A DNA stretch of 64,000 nucleotides, taken from positions 1-64,000 of the forward strand of contig NZ_MJAK01000005.1 of the NCBI RefSeq assembly GCF_001742745.1, read 5' to 3'. This document shows, piece after piece, positions 2,375 to 34,068 of this stretch. The notes under the pieces are model-generated. The model was not told the origin of the DNA and searched no databases. It saw nothing but the letters and a program-made list of their open reading frames with translations. The position numbers and the translations under genes were made by a program. The DNA comes from Curtobacterium sp. ER1/6. GTDB lineage: Bacteria; Actinomycetota; Actinomycetes; Actinomycetales; Microbacteriaceae. Each line of letters begins with the position of its first letter. The stretch's first letter is position 1.

Positions 2375-2422
2375 GACGGACGGGAGGCCCGTGGCGGATC
2401 CGCCACGGGCCTCCCGTCCGTC
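2375..2422 (+). terminator. 48-bp perfect palindrome, terminator after fruA
   Basis: Two 22-bp perfect arms (2375-2396 and 2401-2422) flank a GATC centre, so the whole element is one continuous palindrome. It starts 15 bp after the fruA stop and has no T tract, as is common for actinobacterial hairpin terminators. The outer arm GACGGACGGGAGGC recurs at 5521, 16955, 22475 and 34022. Confidence 0.8.
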
Positions 2423-5520: not shown

Positions 5521-5568
5521 GACGGACGGGAGGCGCGTGGCGAGCCCGCCACGCGCCTCCCGTCCGTC
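5521..5568. terminator. 48-bp palindrome, bidirectional terminator
   Basis: Arms 5521-5542 and 5547-5568 are fully complementary around AGCC. It separates trpF (plus) from the convergent HAD gene (minus), so it can serve both. It shares its outer 14-nt arm with the elements at 2375, 16955 and 34022. Confidence 0.8.
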
Positions 5569-16954: not shown

Positions 16955-17002
16955 GACGGACGGGAGGCCCGTGGCGACGCCGCCACGGGCCTCCCGTCCG
17001 TC
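16955..17002 (+). terminator. 48-bp palindrome after the HEAT-repeat gene
   Basis: Arms 16955-16976 and 16981-17002 are perfectly complementary around ACGC. The arm sequence is identical to that at 2375 (GACGGACGGGAGGCCCGTGG), 14.5 kb away. Confidence 0.8.
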
Positions 17003-18593: not shown

Positions 18594-18741
18594 CGGCGGG
18601 CTGACGGCGGCGGGCCCATGGCAGCTCTCCCCGAGTGGGCAGGACACGCCGTGTGCGCTCCGTCGAGCGGGCAGGACTCGTCGGGTCGGGTCGTCGAGCG
18701 TGACGGAAACGGCCCGTTCGGCGGGGGCGGGCGGGCGCCGG
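18594..18741. other. Convergent intergenic region, no clear hairpin
   Basis: The gap between the exchanger and mntR stops has repeated CGTCGAGCG words and the phrase GCAGGACACGCCGTGTGCG also seen near 2459. No open frame or convincing terminator is visible. Confidence 0.3.
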
Positions 18742-19431
18742 TCAGTCGTCGTCGGGGGCGAGCCAGATGGCGGCGGCCGCGGCGGCGGGCAGGTCGACGA
18801 GGGACTCCTCGCCGGCCGGGTCCCGCCGGGCGACGGCGACCACCCCGGCGTAGTCGCGGACCCGCTCCACGCGCAGGTGCGTCCCCAGCCCGACCCCGAG
18901 CTCGTCGAAGTAGCGCAGGAGCGCCGGGTCGTCGTCGGACACCCGGTCGACGACCCCGCAGCCGCCGGGCTCGATCGCCGCGAGCAGGGTCCCCGGCGAC
19001 GCGGGCACGGTGCCGTCGGCGGCCGGGATCGGGTCGCCGTGCGGGTCGTGCGTCGGGTGGCCGAGGTCGGCGTCGACCCGGTCGAGGAACGTCTCCGACA
19101 CGGTGTGCTCGAGTGCCTCGGCCTCGGTGTGCACCTCGTCCCACGAGTACCCGAGGCGCTGCACCAGGAACGTCTCGATGAGCCGGTGCCGTCGGACCAT
19201 CGCCACGGCGACCTGCTGCCCGAGTGGGGTGAGCACCACGCCGTAGTACGGGGTGTGCTCGATGAGGCCGTCGCGGTCGAGCTTCCGGAGGTTGCCCGAC
19301 ACCGTGGACGCCGAGACGCCGAGGGCTGCGGCGATGTCCCGCGTCGCGAGCCCCTGCCCGCCGCGCTCGGTCGACTTCCAGACGAGCTTCACGTAGTCCT
19401 CCGCCATCACGGACAGGGAGGGCAGGCGCAT
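18742..19431 (-). CDS. mntR: MntR/DtxR-family metal-dependent repressor
   Basis: A 229-residue regulator. The winged helix covers about 15-75 (IAAALGVSASTVSGNLRKLD). The dimerisation and metal domain has RRHRLIETFLVQRLG and ALEHTVSETFLDRVD with His/Glu ligands, then LGHPTHDPHGDPIP, and a C-terminal SH3-like (FeoA) domain ends the protein. Members bind DNA when loaded with Mn2+ or Fe2+. Convergence with a riboswitch-controlled exporter favours Mn2+. The ATG at 19431 lies in the first copy of a 62-bp tandem repeat and overlaps the stop of an upstream minicistron (TGATG). A shorter start at 19407 cannot be excluded and would put the repeats outside the gene. Confidence 0.88.
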   Translation of the reverse strand: MRLPSLSVMAEDYVKLVWKSTERGGQGLATRDIAAALGVSASTVSGNLRKLDRDGLIEHTPYYGVVLTPLGQQVAVAMVRRHRLIETFLVQRLGYSWDEVHTEAEALEHTVSETFLDRVDADLGHPTHDPHGDPIPAADGTVPASPGTLLAAIEPGGCGVVDRVSDDDPALLRYFDELGVGLGTHLRVERVRDYAGVVAVARRDPAGEESLVDLPAAAAAAIWLAPDDD

Positions 19432-19493
19432 CACGACACCGCCGTAGTGCAGTGTCCGCTCCGGGCCATCACGGACAGGGAGGGCAGGCGCAT
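19431..19493 (-). CDS. 20-codon minicistron in repeat copy 2
   Basis: It starts with ATG at 19493, encodes a peptide beginning MRLPSLSVMARSG and stops with TGA at 19433-19431, where the A is also the first base of the mntR ATG. TGATG overlaps commonly allow termination-reinitiation, so this frame would pass ribosomes to mntR. Whether the peptide itself matters is unknown. Confidence 0.45.
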   Translation of the reverse strand: MRLPSLSVMARSGHCTTAVS

Positions 19494-19555
19494 CACGACA
19501 CCGCCGTAGTGCAGTGTCCGCTCCGGGCCATCACGGACAGGGAGGGCAGGCGCAT
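19493..19555 (-). CDS. 20-codon minicistron in repeat copy 3, leaderless start
   Basis: It is identical in sequence to the next minicistron. Its ATG at 19555 lies 6 nt after TACCAT, matching the leaderless pattern of this genome, so it is the likely ribosome entry for the mntR message. It ends in TGATG at 19493. Confidence 0.45.
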   Translation of the reverse strand: MRLPSLSVMARSGHCTTAVS

Positions 19556-19561
19556 GCGTCA

Positions 19562-19571
19562 ATGGTACAAA
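19562..19571. promoter_or_regulatory. Overlapping divergent -10 boxes
   Basis: On the minus strand TACCAT (19567-19562) precedes the first minicistron ATG by six bases. On the plus strand TACAAA (19566-19571) precedes the CPBP GTG by six bases. The two hexamers share bases 19566-19567, so one bound regulator could control both directions. Confidence 0.45.
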
Positions 19572-19577
19572 CGGCAT

Positions 19578-20459
19578 GTGACCACGACAGCCCCCGACCG
19601 GCGTCGCCGCTGGCCGGTGCCGCCGTCGCTCCTGCTCGGCCTCGCCCCGCTCGTCGCCTTCGCGGCCGTCAGCGCCTGGCGCTCCCGGCCGAGCGACGAC
19701 TACGGCACGCTCGGGCAGACCGTCGACAGCGTCGTCCGGGCGCTCGTGCTGCCGGAGGGGATCGCGGTCCTCGTGCTCTGCGCGTACGTGACCGCACTGG
19801 GCTGGTGGCCGATCGCGACCGTCGACCGCGGCCGCACGGCGCTGCGGTGGACGCTCACCGCGCCGGTCCTCATCGCCGTCGTCTGCGTCGCACGGCTGCC
19901 GCTCGTCGACTGGGGAGCGCAGCCGGTCCGCTACTTCCTGCTGCTCGCCGTCGGGGTGCTGTTCGTCGGGGTGTTCGAGGAACTGCTGACCCGCGGGGTC
20001 CTCGTCGTCGGGCTCCGGCGCCGGCTGCCCGAGTTCGGGGTGTGGGTCGCCTCGTGCGTGCTGTTCGGGCTCCTGCACTTCCTCAACGTCCTGGCCGGGG
20101 CGGGTGTCGGCGTCACGGTCGTGCAGGTGGTCTTCGCGGCCTCGTTCGGCTCGACGCTGTACCTCGCCCGACGCCTCACCGGGAACCTGCTCGCGCCGGT
20201 GCTGCTCCACGGGTTCTGGGACTTCGGGTCCATCGCGGTCTCGGGCACCGTGCAGACGCAGGACCTGGCGCGCCTTGTGCCCGCCGGTGTCATCGGGCTG
20301 TTCGCCTTCGCCGTGCTGGCGCTCGGGGTCGTCGCCGGCGGCGTGGTCGCCTGGCGGGACGACCGGCCGCGTCGCCTGCGACGCCGGTGGCGGACGGTCC
20401 CGCCCATGGGGGCGGTCGCGGAGTCGGCGGGCGAGCCGCGCCTCCCGTCCGCCGTCTGA
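19578..20459 (+). CDS. CPBP-family intramembrane metalloprotease
   Basis: A 293-residue polytopic protein with the CPBP/Rce1-like (Abi) motifs EELLTRGVLVVGLRR, FGLLHFLNV and HGFWDFGS in successive helices, which supply the Glu and His residues of the membrane-embedded metal site. Bacterial members process membrane peptides or serve in bacteriocin immunity; the substrate here is unknown. The GTG at 19578 is preferred because of the TACAAA box 6 nt upstream; an ATG at 19554 is inside the repeat. Its promoter abuts that of mntR, so metal control is possible. The 3' end carries a half copy of the GGACGGGAGGC motif. Confidence 0.85.
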   Translation: MTTTAPDRRRRWPVPPSLLLGLAPLVAFAAVSAWRSRPSDDYGTLGQTVDSVVRALVLPEGIAVLVLCAYVTALGWWPIATVDRGRTALRWTLTAPVLIAVVCVARLPLVDWGAQPVRYFLLLAVGVLFVGVFEELLTRGVLVVGLRRRLPEFGVWVASCVLFGLLHFLNVLAGAGVGVTVVQVVFAASFGSTLYLARRLTGNLLAPVLLHGFWDFGSIAVSGTVQTQDLARLVPAGVIGLFAFAVLALGVVAGGVVAWRDDRPRRLRRRWRTVPPMGAVAESAGEPRLPSAV

Positions 20460-20621: not shown

Positions 20622-22445
20622 ATGCGCAGATCCGCCCTCCGCGGAGTGACCGTCGCCGCCGTCGCGACCGCACTCGTCGTCGGGTCGCCGCTCGCCGCAC
20701 AGGCCGCGACGTACCCGAGCGACTCCACCAAGCCCGACCTCGTGTCGCTGCTGAACGGCTACGACCAGTACTGGACGTCGACCGGGAAGAACGACCTGCA
20801 CGGCACCGTGAACGACCCGGCGACCCTGGCGACGAACGACCGGCTCACGTCCTGGATCAACCAGCACGCGACGAAGGCGCAGCAGTTCACGGCCCTGCAG
20901 GACGCCGAGTACGACAACGCGACGAACACCGCCTACGACCAGTCCTTCACGGTCTCCGAGGGCCTCGGCGACGCGCTCAGCAAGCTGTTCGTGCAGGGAC
21001 GCGACGACGGCGACCTGCCGCTCGTCAACGCGCTCATCAACTCGTCGAACGGCACGAGCGGCGCCTACGTCGGCACCGGCGACGCGAAGGCCCACTACAG
21101 CTACCCGCGGCCGTACCTGCCGACCGACACCGCGGCGACGCTGCCCGCCGGTGACGACACGGCCAGCTGCAACCCGGCGACCGTGAACGCGTCGTCGCTC
21201 GCCGCGAACCGCACCGGCAAGGCCTGGGCGGACGCGAAGGGCAACCTCACGATCACGCGCGTGCCCGCGGTGACCGACACCACGCACCAGTTCTCGCCGA
21301 ACGACGTCGTGCTCGACGCCGGCTACGGCCAGAAGGGCATCTGCACCGGCGGCTCGTACCCCTCGGGCCACACGACGACGGCGTACCAGGCGGGCATCAC
21401 CCTCGCCACGCTCGTGCCGGAGCTCGCGCCGGAGATCCTCGCGCGTGCCTCCGAGGCCGGCAACGACCGGATCGTCCTCGGCGTGCACTACCCGCTCGAC
21501 ATCATGGGCGGCCGCATCGACGGCGAGGCCGCCCTGGCTGCCCGGTGGTCCGACACCCAGTACCGCACCGAGGTCCTCGAGCCGGCCCGCGCCGAGCTGA
21601 CGAAGTACCTCGAGGCGAAGTGCGGTGGCACCCTCGCCGACTGCATCGCGGCGGAGAAGCCGTACACCGACGACCCGTACGGTGGCCAGGCGATGCCCGG
21701 CGGCACGGCCCAGGTCGTCACCGACCGCGCCTCGGCCGCGAAGGTCTACCGCGAGCGCATGACCTACGGCTTCGCGAAGACCGGCACCGTCGGCCTGGCA
21801 CCGTCGGTCCCGACCGGCGCGTCGAACCTGCTGCTCTCGACCTTCCCGACCCTGACCGACGCGCAGCGCACCGCGGTGCTCGCGCAGACCGAGATCGCGT
21901 CGGGGTACCCCCTCGACCAGTCCGGCACAGCGAGCGGCTCGTGGGAGCGTCTCGACCTGGCCGCCGCCACGAGCGCGACCGTCGCGGTCGCCGCGGACGG
22001 CACCGCCACCGTGGTGTCCACCGGTGGTGACGCCCGCGTCGTCTCGGGTGTGCTGACCGCTCCCGAGGGCACCTCCGTCGAGGCCGGGAAGCCGATCGCC
22101 CTCGCCGGCACCGGTCTGCCCGCCGGAGCGACCCTCCAGGTCGTGCTGCGCTCCGACCCGGTCGTGGTCGGCACGTTGACCGTCGGGGCCGACGGCACCG
22201 CGTCCGGCTCGGTCACGGTCCCCGCGGGCACCACCGCGGGCGCGCACACGCTCGACCTGGTCGACGCGTCGGGTGCCTCGGTGCTCGTGTCGCCGCTCGC
22301 GATCACCGTGACGGCCGCGCCCGCCACGGGAGGCACCGGGACCGGCACCGGGACCGGCAGCACCGGCACCGGCGGGACCGGCACCGGGGCCGGCAGCACC
22401 GGCACCGTGCCGGCCGGCGTGCACCTGCCCGTCGTCAGCGGCTGA
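20622..22445 (+). CDS. Secreted class A-type (PAP2) acid phosphatase
   Basis: A 607-residue exported enzyme. The signal peptide ends near AAQAAT (residue 28). The PAP2 signature is complete: KAHYSYPRP (about 156-164), GGSYPSGHTT (about 243-252) and EAGNDRIVLGVHYPLDIMG (about 281-299), supplying Lys, two Arg, two His and the Asp of the phosphatase site. A C-terminal Ig-like domain (about 480-570) and a GTGTGTGST linker follow, and the protein ends LPVVSG. It probably releases phosphate from organic esters outside the cell. The same LPVV.G ending occurs in the protein at 35329. Two hairpins follow the stop. Confidence 0.92.
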   Translation: MRRSALRGVTVAAVATALVVGSPLAAQAATYPSDSTKPDLVSLLNGYDQYWTSTGKNDLHGTVNDPATLATNDRLTSWINQHATKAQQFTALQDAEYDNATNTAYDQSFTVSEGLGDALSKLFVQGRDDGDLPLVNALINSSNGTSGAYVGTGDAKAHYSYPRPYLPTDTAATLPAGDDTASCNPATVNASSLAANRTGKAWADAKGNLTITRVPAVTDTTHQFSPNDVVLDAGYGQKGICTGGSYPSGHTTTAYQAGITLATLVPELAPEILARASEAGNDRIVLGVHYPLDIMGGRIDGEAALAARWSDTQYRTEVLEPARAELTKYLEAKCGGTLADCIAAEKPYTDDPYGGQAMPGGTAQVVTDRASAAKVYRERMTYGFAKTGTVGLAPSVPTGASNLLLSTFPTLTDAQRTAVLAQTEIASGYPLDQSGTASGSWERLDLAAATSATVAVAADGTATVVSTGGDARVVSGVLTAPEGTSVEAGKPIALAGTGLPAGATLQVVLRSDPVVVGTLTVGADGTASGSVTVPAGTTAGAHTLDLVDASGASVLVSPLAITVTAAPATGGTGTGTGTGSTGTGGTGTGAGSTGTVPAGVHLPVVSG

Positions 22446-22472: not shown

Positions 22473-22522
22473 CGCCGGACGGGAGGCGCGTGGCCAGGCC
22501 GCCACGCGCCTCCCGTTCGGCG
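22473..22522. terminator. GGACGGGAGGC-family palindrome, degenerate copy
   Basis: Arms CGCCGGACGGGAGGCGCGTGGC and its near complement (one mismatch) lie 27 bp after the phosphatase stop, in a convergent gap. Confidence 0.7.
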
Positions 22523-24241: not shown

Positions 24242-24302
24242 CCGGACGGGAGGCGCGAGGCACGCGCCCTACGCTGGTCACGTGACCGAGCGCCTCCCGT
24301 CC
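24242..24302 (+). repeat. Split GGACGGGAGGC palindrome overlapping a gene start
   Basis: CCGGACGGGAGGCGCG (24242-24257) and CGCCTCCCGTCCG (24290-24302) are arms of the dispersed family, here separated by 32 bp that hold a TACGCT promoter and a GTG start. The right arm encodes the first residues of the TrmH protein. Confidence 0.7.
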
Positions 24303-25025
24303 GACCCCGTGGCCGAGCCGTCGGGACCGGACGCGGCCCGACCGGTGGCCGAGCCCGGCACCGCGCCGGCGCAGCCGGACCGTCCCGCTCCGGTCCTGCC
24401 GCCGACGCACGAGACCACCACGAACGGCGTCGGACCGCACCCCGAGCCGTGGCCGGACGACCCGCGGCTGGATCCCGAGCTCCTCGCGGCCGGGGACACC
24501 CGCAACGTCGTCGACCGGTTCCGGTACTGGTCGATGGACGCGATCGTCGCCGAGCTCGACACCCGCCGGCACTCCTTCGACGTCGCGATCGAGAACTGGC
24601 AACACGACCTGAACATCGGGTCGATCGTGCGGAGCGCCAACGCCTTCCTCGCGGGGACGGTGCACGTGATCGGTCGGCGGCGGTGGAACAAGCGCGGGGC
24701 GATGGTCACCGACCGCTACCAGCACGTCCGGTACCACCCCGACGTCGCCGCGTTCCTCGCGGCCATGCGGGAGGACGGCCGGCCGGTCGTCGCGGTCGAC
24801 AACACCCCGGGCGCCGAGCGGATCGAGACCGCGGCGATCCCGGAGCGGTGCGTGTTCCTGTTCGGGCAGGAGGGACCCGGACTCACCGACGAGGCCGTCG
24901 CCGGCGCGGACGCGCACCTCGAGATCACGCAGTTCGGGTCGACGCGGAGCATCAACGCGTCGGCCGCCGCGGCGATCGTCATGCACGCGTGGGTCGTGCA
25001 GCACGCGGAGCTGCCGGCCGACTGA
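24282..25025 (+). CDS. TrmH/SpoU-family RNA 2'-O-methyltransferase
   Basis: A 247-residue protein. The first 65 residues are Pro/Glu-rich and unconserved, partly encoded by a palindromic repeat. The SpoU domain (about 95-245) has the knot motifs ENWQHDLNIGSIVRSANAF, VFLFGQEGPGLTDEA and STRSINASAAAAIVMHAW, which bind S-adenosylmethionine. The target is a tRNA or rRNA nucleotide that cannot be fixed from sequence. GTG 24282 is 6 nt after TACGCT; the open frame reaches 24237 but that is upstream of the promoter box. Confidence 0.88.
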   Translation: MTERLPSDPVAEPSGPDAARPVAEPGTAPAQPDRPAPVLPPTHETTTNGVGPHPEPWPDDPRLDPELLAAGDTRNVVDRFRYWSMDAIVAELDTRRHSFDVAIENWQHDLNIGSIVRSANAFLAGTVHVIGRRRWNKRGAMVTDRYQHVRYHPDVAAFLAAMREDGRPVVAVDNTPGAERIETAAIPERCVFLFGQEGPGLTDEAVAGADAHLEITQFGSTRSINASAAAAIVMHAWVVQHAELPAD

Positions 25026-34021: not shown

Positions 34022-34068
34022 GACGGACGGGAGGCGCGGTGCCAGCTGGCACCGCGCCTCCCGTCCGT
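34022..34068. terminator. 48-bp-family palindrome between small genes
   Basis: Arms from 34022 (GACGGACGGGAGGCGCGGTG) and 34048-34068 pair around AGCT. It separates two convergent small genes. Confidence 0.75.

What the first reader, a model, noticed from the sequence alone, without database searches (positions are those of the whole stretch)
19404..19567. Tandem 62-bp repeat builds coupled minicistrons in front of mntR
Two identical 62-bp units plus 28 bp of a third span the mntR start. Because 62 is not a multiple of three and each unit has an in-frame TGA overlapping the next ATG (TGATG), every copy is a complete 20-codon cistron. A leaderless-type promoter (TACCAT, six bases, ATG 19555) sits only before the outermost copy. 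Ribosomes would enter there, stop and restart twice before reaching MntR at 19431. Copy-number change by slippage would add or remove a coupling step without breaking the frame. This would be a tunable translational relay controlling a manganese repressor.
Basis: partly seen in the sequence, partly recalled or inferred. Interest (0 to 1): 0.78.

Follow-up and report, generated by a model that had tools for sequence, protein, structure and literature searches.

The report
Repeated mini-genes before manganese repressor
In this Curtobacterium bacterium the start of a metal-sensing (probably manganese) repressor gene has been copied twice in a row, so that ribosomes probably have to read two tiny genes one after the other before reaching the repressor; related species have one or none of these mini-genes, which makes it a natural, testable step-counter for translation.

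Summary
The repeat is real. On the minus strand of a Curtobacterium genome, two identical 62-bp units plus 29 bp of a third (19555-19403) lie across the start of a DtxR-family repressor, best matched to MntR. Each unit is a complete 20-codon ORF whose TGA overlaps the next start as GTGATG. In all 61 Curtobacterium genomes with this mntR, a TACNAT (one TAGCAT) box lies 6-7 nt before the first ATG, so mntR looks ancestrally leaderless. Fifty-eight have no unit. One close relative (G469) has one 62-bp unit. One distant species (G024) has one 59-bp unit with a homologous linker, a similar peptide and the same GTGATG junction. So the single unit is not an assembly artefact, and unit number varies between species (0, 1, 2). 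Units contain no internal -10 box. Most likely, ribosomes enter at the 5' ATG and reach MntR by termination-reinitiation, twice in this genome. Closest known kinds are the leaderless "coupled" small ORFs of mycobacteria and MIRUs (tandem, variable, coupled). Unlike MIRUs, this unit contains the target gene's own 5' end and occurs nowhere else in the genome. Whether it tunes MntR or is a tolerated accident is not shown.

The parts
19562..19567 (-). TACCAT, leaderless-type -10 box, six bases before the first ATG
   Evidence: a TACCAT, TACGAT or TAGCAT box at 6-7 nt precedes the first ATG in 61 of 61 Curtobacterium mntR loci (57 by pattern; the 4 'none' rows there show TACCAT plus 6 nt by eye)
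19494..19555 (-). repeat unit 1 (62 bp); mini-ORF MRLPSLSVMARSGHCTTAVS*, whose stop ends at 19493
19432..19493 (-). repeat unit 2 (62 bp), identical; second mini-ORF, whose stop ends at 19431
19403..19431 (-). partial third copy (29 bp) = native 5' end of mntR, MRLPSLSVMA
   Evidence: MRLPSLSTM or a near variant in 61 of 61 mntR orthologues
19494..19526 (-). 33-bp linker of unit 1 (not from the mntR start), ending in the GTG of GTGATG
   Evidence: homologous linkers only in G469 and G024, both at mntR
19432..19464 (-). 33-bp linker of unit 2, identical
19491..19496 (-). GTGATG junction 1: TGA stop overlapping GTG (4 nt) and ATG (1 nt)
19429..19434 (-). GTGATG junction 2, restart codon of MntR (GTG 19434 or ATG 19431)
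18742..19431 (-). mntR, DtxR-family metal-dependent repressor (HTH, metal-binding/dimerisation and FeoA domains), 229 aa
   Evidence: PF02742 1.8e-30, PF01325 1.3e-12, PF04023 3.9e-10; best NCBIfam model MntR 9e-52 but below its cut-off
19578..20459 (+). divergent CPBP (Rce1-like) intramembrane protease gene; conserved neighbour
   Evidence: PF02517; same neighbour in G469, G024, G016, G027, G015

Best explanation
In Curtobacterium, mntR is normally a leaderless-type gene: a TACCAT box six bases before the ATG puts the start codon at or near the 5' end of the mRNA. In three of 61 sampled species a unit made of a copy of the first 29 bp of mntR plus a 30-33-bp linker stands between that promoter and mntR. 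The 5' ATG then opens a 19-20-codon mini-ORF that ends in GTGATG, overlapping the next start. Ribosomes enter at the leaderless ATG, read the mini-ORF, terminate at TGA, and restart on the overlapping GTG or ATG. In the window genome the unit was duplicated exactly, so there are two such steps before MntR. Each step probably passes on only part of the ribosomes, so unit number should set MntR dose, and the direct repeats would allow units to be lost or gained without touching the MntR frame. Shown here: the repeat, the frames, the conserved promoter spacing, the 0/1/2 distribution and the homologous unit in a distant species. Inferred: leaderless transcription, reinitiation, the dose effect and ongoing copy-number change.
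For: Exact 62-bp tandem with complete mini-ORFs and overlapping stop/start. Promoter hexamer at 6-7 nt from the first ATG in 61 of 61 orthologous loci, before the mini-ORF where a unit is present: the unit-bearing ATG lies 124, 62 and 59 nt from the mntR ATG in window, G469 and G024. No internal TANNNT in any unit. GTGATG junction in all three unit-bearing genomes; unit lengths 62, 62 and 59, all 2 mod 3; the length difference is 3 nt. Linker found at no other place in 66 Curtobacterium genomes. Flanking genes are the same in the relatives checked. Leaderless coupled small ORFs are established in mycobacteria (PMC4633059), and termination-reinitiation at overlapping stop/start codons has been tested experimentally in E. 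coli and Haloferax (PMC6728339).
Against: No transcript or ribosome data. The Shine-Dalgarno-like element before the restart codon is only moderate (-8.9 kcal/mol in the window, -5.0 in G024, shuffles -5.9 +/- 2.2), so reinitiation may be inefficient, or some de novo initiation may occur. Frame conservation by itself is weak statistically. Only 3 of 61 species carry a unit, so it is not generally needed.
Confidence: 0.65

Rival explanations
1. Tolerated accident: the coupled mini-ORFs are translated but serve no regulatory purpose; selection keeps the GTGATG junction only because MntR must still be made, and units are being lost by recombination between the 28-29-bp repeats. (This shares the entry-and-restart mechanism with the best explanation and differs on function.)
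For: Only 3 of 61 species carry a unit, with at least three changes on the tree and two separate clades; closest relatives such as G016 have a clean start without a unit; peptide residues between the conserved ones vary.
Against: The unit occurs in two clades with a homologous, diverged linker, so it has persisted, or been passed on, for a long time although deletion between direct repeats should be easy (inference).
Confidence: 0.45
2. MntR is translated directly: an internal transcription start, or de novo initiation at 19431/19434 on a leadered mRNA, bypasses the mini-ORFs, which are then just a 5' leader.
For: A moderate SD-like stretch (GGCGGTGT) lies before the restart codon.
Against: No TANNNT box in the units and no sigma-70-like site in 19380-19720; the only recognisable promoter is the ancestral leaderless-type one at 19567-19562; a 5'-terminal AUG would itself capture ribosomes (general knowledge).
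Confidence: 0.2
3. The second 62-bp copy in this genome is an assembly artefact; the true state is one unit, as in G469.
For: The two units are letter-for-letter identical, and the genome is a 19-contig draft.
Against: The whole array is 153 bp, about the reach of ordinary short reads, and the assembly reads through it inside a 267-kb contig. The single unit itself is confirmed by G469 (3.3-Mb contig) and G024.
Confidence: 0.1
4. The unit acts as DNA or RNA, for example as an MntR operator or a hairpin, and the ORF is incidental.
For: The window linker holds an imperfect palindrome GACACTGC-ACTACG-GCGGTGTC (fold -13.4 kcal/mol).
Against: The palindrome is broken in G469 (TCG to CTG) and absent in G024, where the fold is different; the sequence words tested are not found as a shared site upstream of the Nramp gene; no terminator-like site.
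Confidence: 0.05
5. A small mobile repeat of MIRU type inserted at the mntR start codon.
For: MIRUs are mobile repeats that insert at start codons and carry an ORF coupled with the target gene (PMC12548453), and stand in tandem in differing sets in different strains (PMC4213456).
Against: Only one place in the whole genome, linker-like hits elsewhere in the genus no more frequent than the control pattern, none in plasmids or phages, and nearly half of the unit is the target gene's own 5' end.
Confidence: 0.08

Closest known systems
Leaderless 'coupled' small ORFs of mycobacteria (Shell et al. 2015, PMC4633059)
   Same: Leaderless-type entry at a 5' ATG, a small ORF of 5-50 codons, TGA stop overlapping the start of the downstream gene through an RTGA tetramer; in mycobacteria too the coupling can be conserved more than the peptide.
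   Different: Here the small ORF is built from the downstream gene's own first 29 bp and is tandemly repeated, so that two coupling steps lie in series; the junction is GTGATG, which offers both a 4-nt and a 1-nt overlap. Leaderless transcription is not measured here.
Mycobacterial interspersed repetitive units (MIRU), e.g. senX3-regX3 (PMC12548453, PMC4213456)
   Same: Short repeats that can stand in tandem, unit set differing between genomes, each unit with an ORF coupled to the gene by overlapping stop and start.
   Different: MIRUs are dispersed and apparently mobile and do not derive from the target gene; this unit is found only at mntR and contains the mntR start. senX3-regX3 MIRUs lie between two genes; this one lies behind a leaderless-type promoter.
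Termination-reinitiation at overlapping gene pairs (ATGA/TGATG), PMC6728339
   Same: Overlapping stop and start codons as the presumed restart signal.
   Different: Usually full-length gene pairs; here serial 20-codon ORFs.

Membership tests
Leaderless coupled small ORF (Shell et al. 2015) | transcription start at the A of the small ORF's ATG | tested here: inconclusive
   TACCAT plus six bases in the window, and the spacing conserved in 61 of 61 loci, but no 5'-end data
Leaderless coupled small ORF (Shell et al. 2015) | small ORF of 5-50 codons upstream of an annotated gene | tested here: met
   20, 20 and 19 codons in window, G469 and G024
Leaderless coupled small ORF (Shell et al. 2015) | TGA overlapping RTG of the downstream ORF (RTGA) | tested here: met
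   GTGATG at all junctions; GTG 19434 is in frame with MntR
Leaderless coupled small ORF (Shell et al. 2015) | ribosome footprints on the small ORF | not testable with these tools
   no ribosome profiling available
MIRU | tandem units of tens of bp with variable copy number | tested here: met
   62-bp units, 0/1/2 between species; variation within a species not tested
MIRU | unit ORF coupled to the gene by stop/start overlap | tested here: met
   GTGATG junctions
MIRU | dispersed at many loci | tested here: not met
   single place in the genome; linker only at mntR in 66 genomes
MIRU | sequence similarity to mycobacterial MIRU consensus | not tested
   no MIRU sequence was at hand; 29 of the 62 bp are mntR's own
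MntR (DtxR family) | DtxR N-terminal HTH and metal-binding/dimerisation domains | tested here: met
   PF01325, PF02742, PF04023
MntR (DtxR family) | passes the curated MntR equivalog cut-off | tested here: not met
   best NCBIfam hit is MntR at 176 bits, cut-off 350; manganese as the metal is therefore inference

The most novel reading that the evidence does not exclude
A contingency locus made of coupled mini-cistrons: unit number changes by slippage within populations and sets the dose of a metal repressor by the number of serial termination-reinitiation steps, without ever breaking the reading frame.
Probability: 0.15. Interest if true: 0.8.

Novelty: new variant of a known kind. Interest (0 to 1): 0.5.

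Why it matters
Coupled upstream mini-ORFs are known in actinobacteria, but a series of identical ones made from the target gene's own leaderless-type start, with 0, 1 and 2 copies in related species, is a ready natural experiment for measuring how many ribosomes pass each termination-reinitiation step. If unit number also varies within strains, it would be a frame-safe way to set repressor dose. It also shows a simple path by which a leaderless gene can acquire a coupled upstream ORF.

Tried and rejected
(1) Dispersed or mobile repeat: pattern searches for the linker in 66 Curtobacterium genomes, 400 family genomes with the mntR-start-plus-MAR pattern and 149 genomes of the order with the linker peptide pattern gave nothing beyond mntR; the loose hits were no more frequent than the reversed control and lie in unrelated frames. 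G024 and G469 were not among the 400 family genomes drawn, so one search does not contradict. (2) Plasmid or phage origin of the unit: no match. (3) Linker copied from inside mntR (GTACTACGGCG region, 77% over 22 bp): other chance pairs of similar quality occur in the same output, so not accepted. (4) RNA hairpin: not conserved. (5) Shared operator with the Nramp gene: the words tested were not found there. (7) The G459 row of alignment A1 was taken on the wrong strand and is ignored.

Full report
OBSERVATION. The array is real and exact: 19403-19555 on the minus strand, two identical 62-bp units and 29 bp of a third, 100% identity. It is by far the strongest tandem array in the window (score 306; next 135). 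Each unit is ATGCGCCTGCCCTCCCTGTCCGTGATGGC (the 5' end of mntR) plus a 33-bp linker, CCGGAGCGGACACTGCACTACGGCGGTGTCGTG. Read from its ATG, each gives MRLPSLSVMARSGHCTTAVS and ends in TGA, whose A begins the next ATG.

GENES. The downstream protein has the three domains of a full-length DtxR-family repressor and matches MntR best, though below the curated cut-off. The genome also encodes an Nramp-type transporter, a common MntR target (general knowledge). The neighbours, a Na/Ca exchanger gene and a divergent CPBP protease gene, are conserved around the locus in the five relatives examined in detail, three without a unit and both that carry one. The nearest named relatives are Curtobacterium, and the held genomes are of the same genus.

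COMPARISON. Of 66 Curtobacterium genomes, 61 have an orthologous mntR. I read the start region of all 61. In every one the first ATG stands 6 or 7 nt after TACCAT, TACGAT or, once, TAGCAT (57 by pattern, 4 more by eye in the same output). This is the arrangement expected of a leaderless gene (general knowledge of actinobacterial promoters). Within the window it is rare: 8 of 870 ATGs have any TANNNT at that distance. So the promoter is ancestral and was not created by the repeat.

Fifty-eight genomes have no unit. G469, a close relative in a 3.3-Mb contig, has one 62-bp unit that differs at three positions in the linker and encodes MRLPSLSVMARSGHCTTAVL. G024, from another clade, has one 59-bp unit encoding MRLPSLSTMARSSHSTTAA. 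Its linker is clearly homologous (CACTACGGCGG core) and it has the same GTGATG junction. In G024 the upstream copy of the mntR start resembles that of G021, G461 and G462 (one difference), while the copy that opens mntR resembles G354 and G456, its nearest kin (two differences). So the two copies there are not a recent duplicate of each other: either the unit is old, or it arrived by recombination from another species. G459 has no unit but shares the otherwise unseen Val8 of window and G469, which may be a trace of a lost unit; this is speculation. Trees of mntR and of the upstream region both need three changes of state.

MECHANISM. Entry at 19555 is inferred from the conserved promoter. No other promoter-like hexamer lies inside the units, and no sigma-70-like or terminator-like site was found in 19380-19720 (that scan also misses the leaderless-type promoter, which lacks a recognisable -35). 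From 19555 the reading frame forces termination at 19493 and again at 19431, so MntR can be made only by restart at the overlapping codons or by de novo initiation there. The SD-like stretch before the restart codon is moderate (-8.9 kcal/mol against -5.9 +/- 2.2 for shuffles; -5.0 in G024). Published work shows that termination-reinitiation at overlapping pairs can happen without an SD but is usually weaker (PMC6728339), that it is sensitive to IF2 and IF3 levels, as has also been suggested for leaderless initiation (PMC2268962), and that leaderless coupled small ORFs are over-represented in mycobacteria (PMC4633059). I therefore expect each unit to lower MntR output by a factor, but this is inference.

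HOW STRONG IS THE CASE FOR FUNCTION. Weak. A simple simulation shows that three random substitutions would keep the coupled frame in 76% of cases, and eight substitutions plus one indel of 1-6 nt in 16%. A random linker would give this junction in about 1.4% of cases, but one origin suffices for all three genomes. Selection to keep making MntR would preserve the junction even if the mini-ORFs did nothing useful. The palindrome in the window linker is broken in G469 and absent in G024, which speaks against an operator or hairpin.

KNOWN RELATIVES. It works like the leaderless coupled small ORFs of mycobacteria. In being tandem and variable it is like MIRUs, which a 2025 review describes as mobile repeats that insert at start codons and carry an ORF coupled to the gene (PMC12548453), and which differ between strains at senX3-regX3 (PMC4213456). 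It is not a MIRU by the test of dispersal: one place in the genome, only mntR in the genus, nothing in plasmids or phages. The distinctive point is that the unit is built from the target gene's own leaderless-type start. I searched the held literature for mntR leader ORFs and for tandem coupled uORFs and found no such case; most subscription papers are not held.

VERDICT. A real, well-formed and comparatively supported structure; a new variant of a known kind. The mechanism of entry and restart is likely; its regulatory meaning is open.

Noticed in passing
window 2375-2420, 5521-5566, 16955-17000, 22476-22519, 24243-24303, 34022-34067 and single arms elsewhere: A dispersed near-perfect palindrome whose arms read ACGGACGGGAGGC...: 22 matches to CGGACGGGAGGCNCGG with up to two mismatches against 2.7 expected. 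Several lie between genes and may be bidirectional terminators or REP-like elements.
   Followed up: partly
window 18632-18700: Two imperfect copies of a ~32-bp sequence (GAGCGGGCAGGAC...) just downstream of mntR, between mntR and the Na/Ca exchanger gene.
   Followed up: no
window 22332-22418: 36-bp repeat with 97% identity in the C-terminal Gly/Thr-rich tail of a PAP2-family protein.
   Followed up: no
L030 (G024) 1442-1530: The two copies of the mntR start differ at several silent positions, and the upstream one resembles other species, suggesting recombination or great age.
   Followed up: partly
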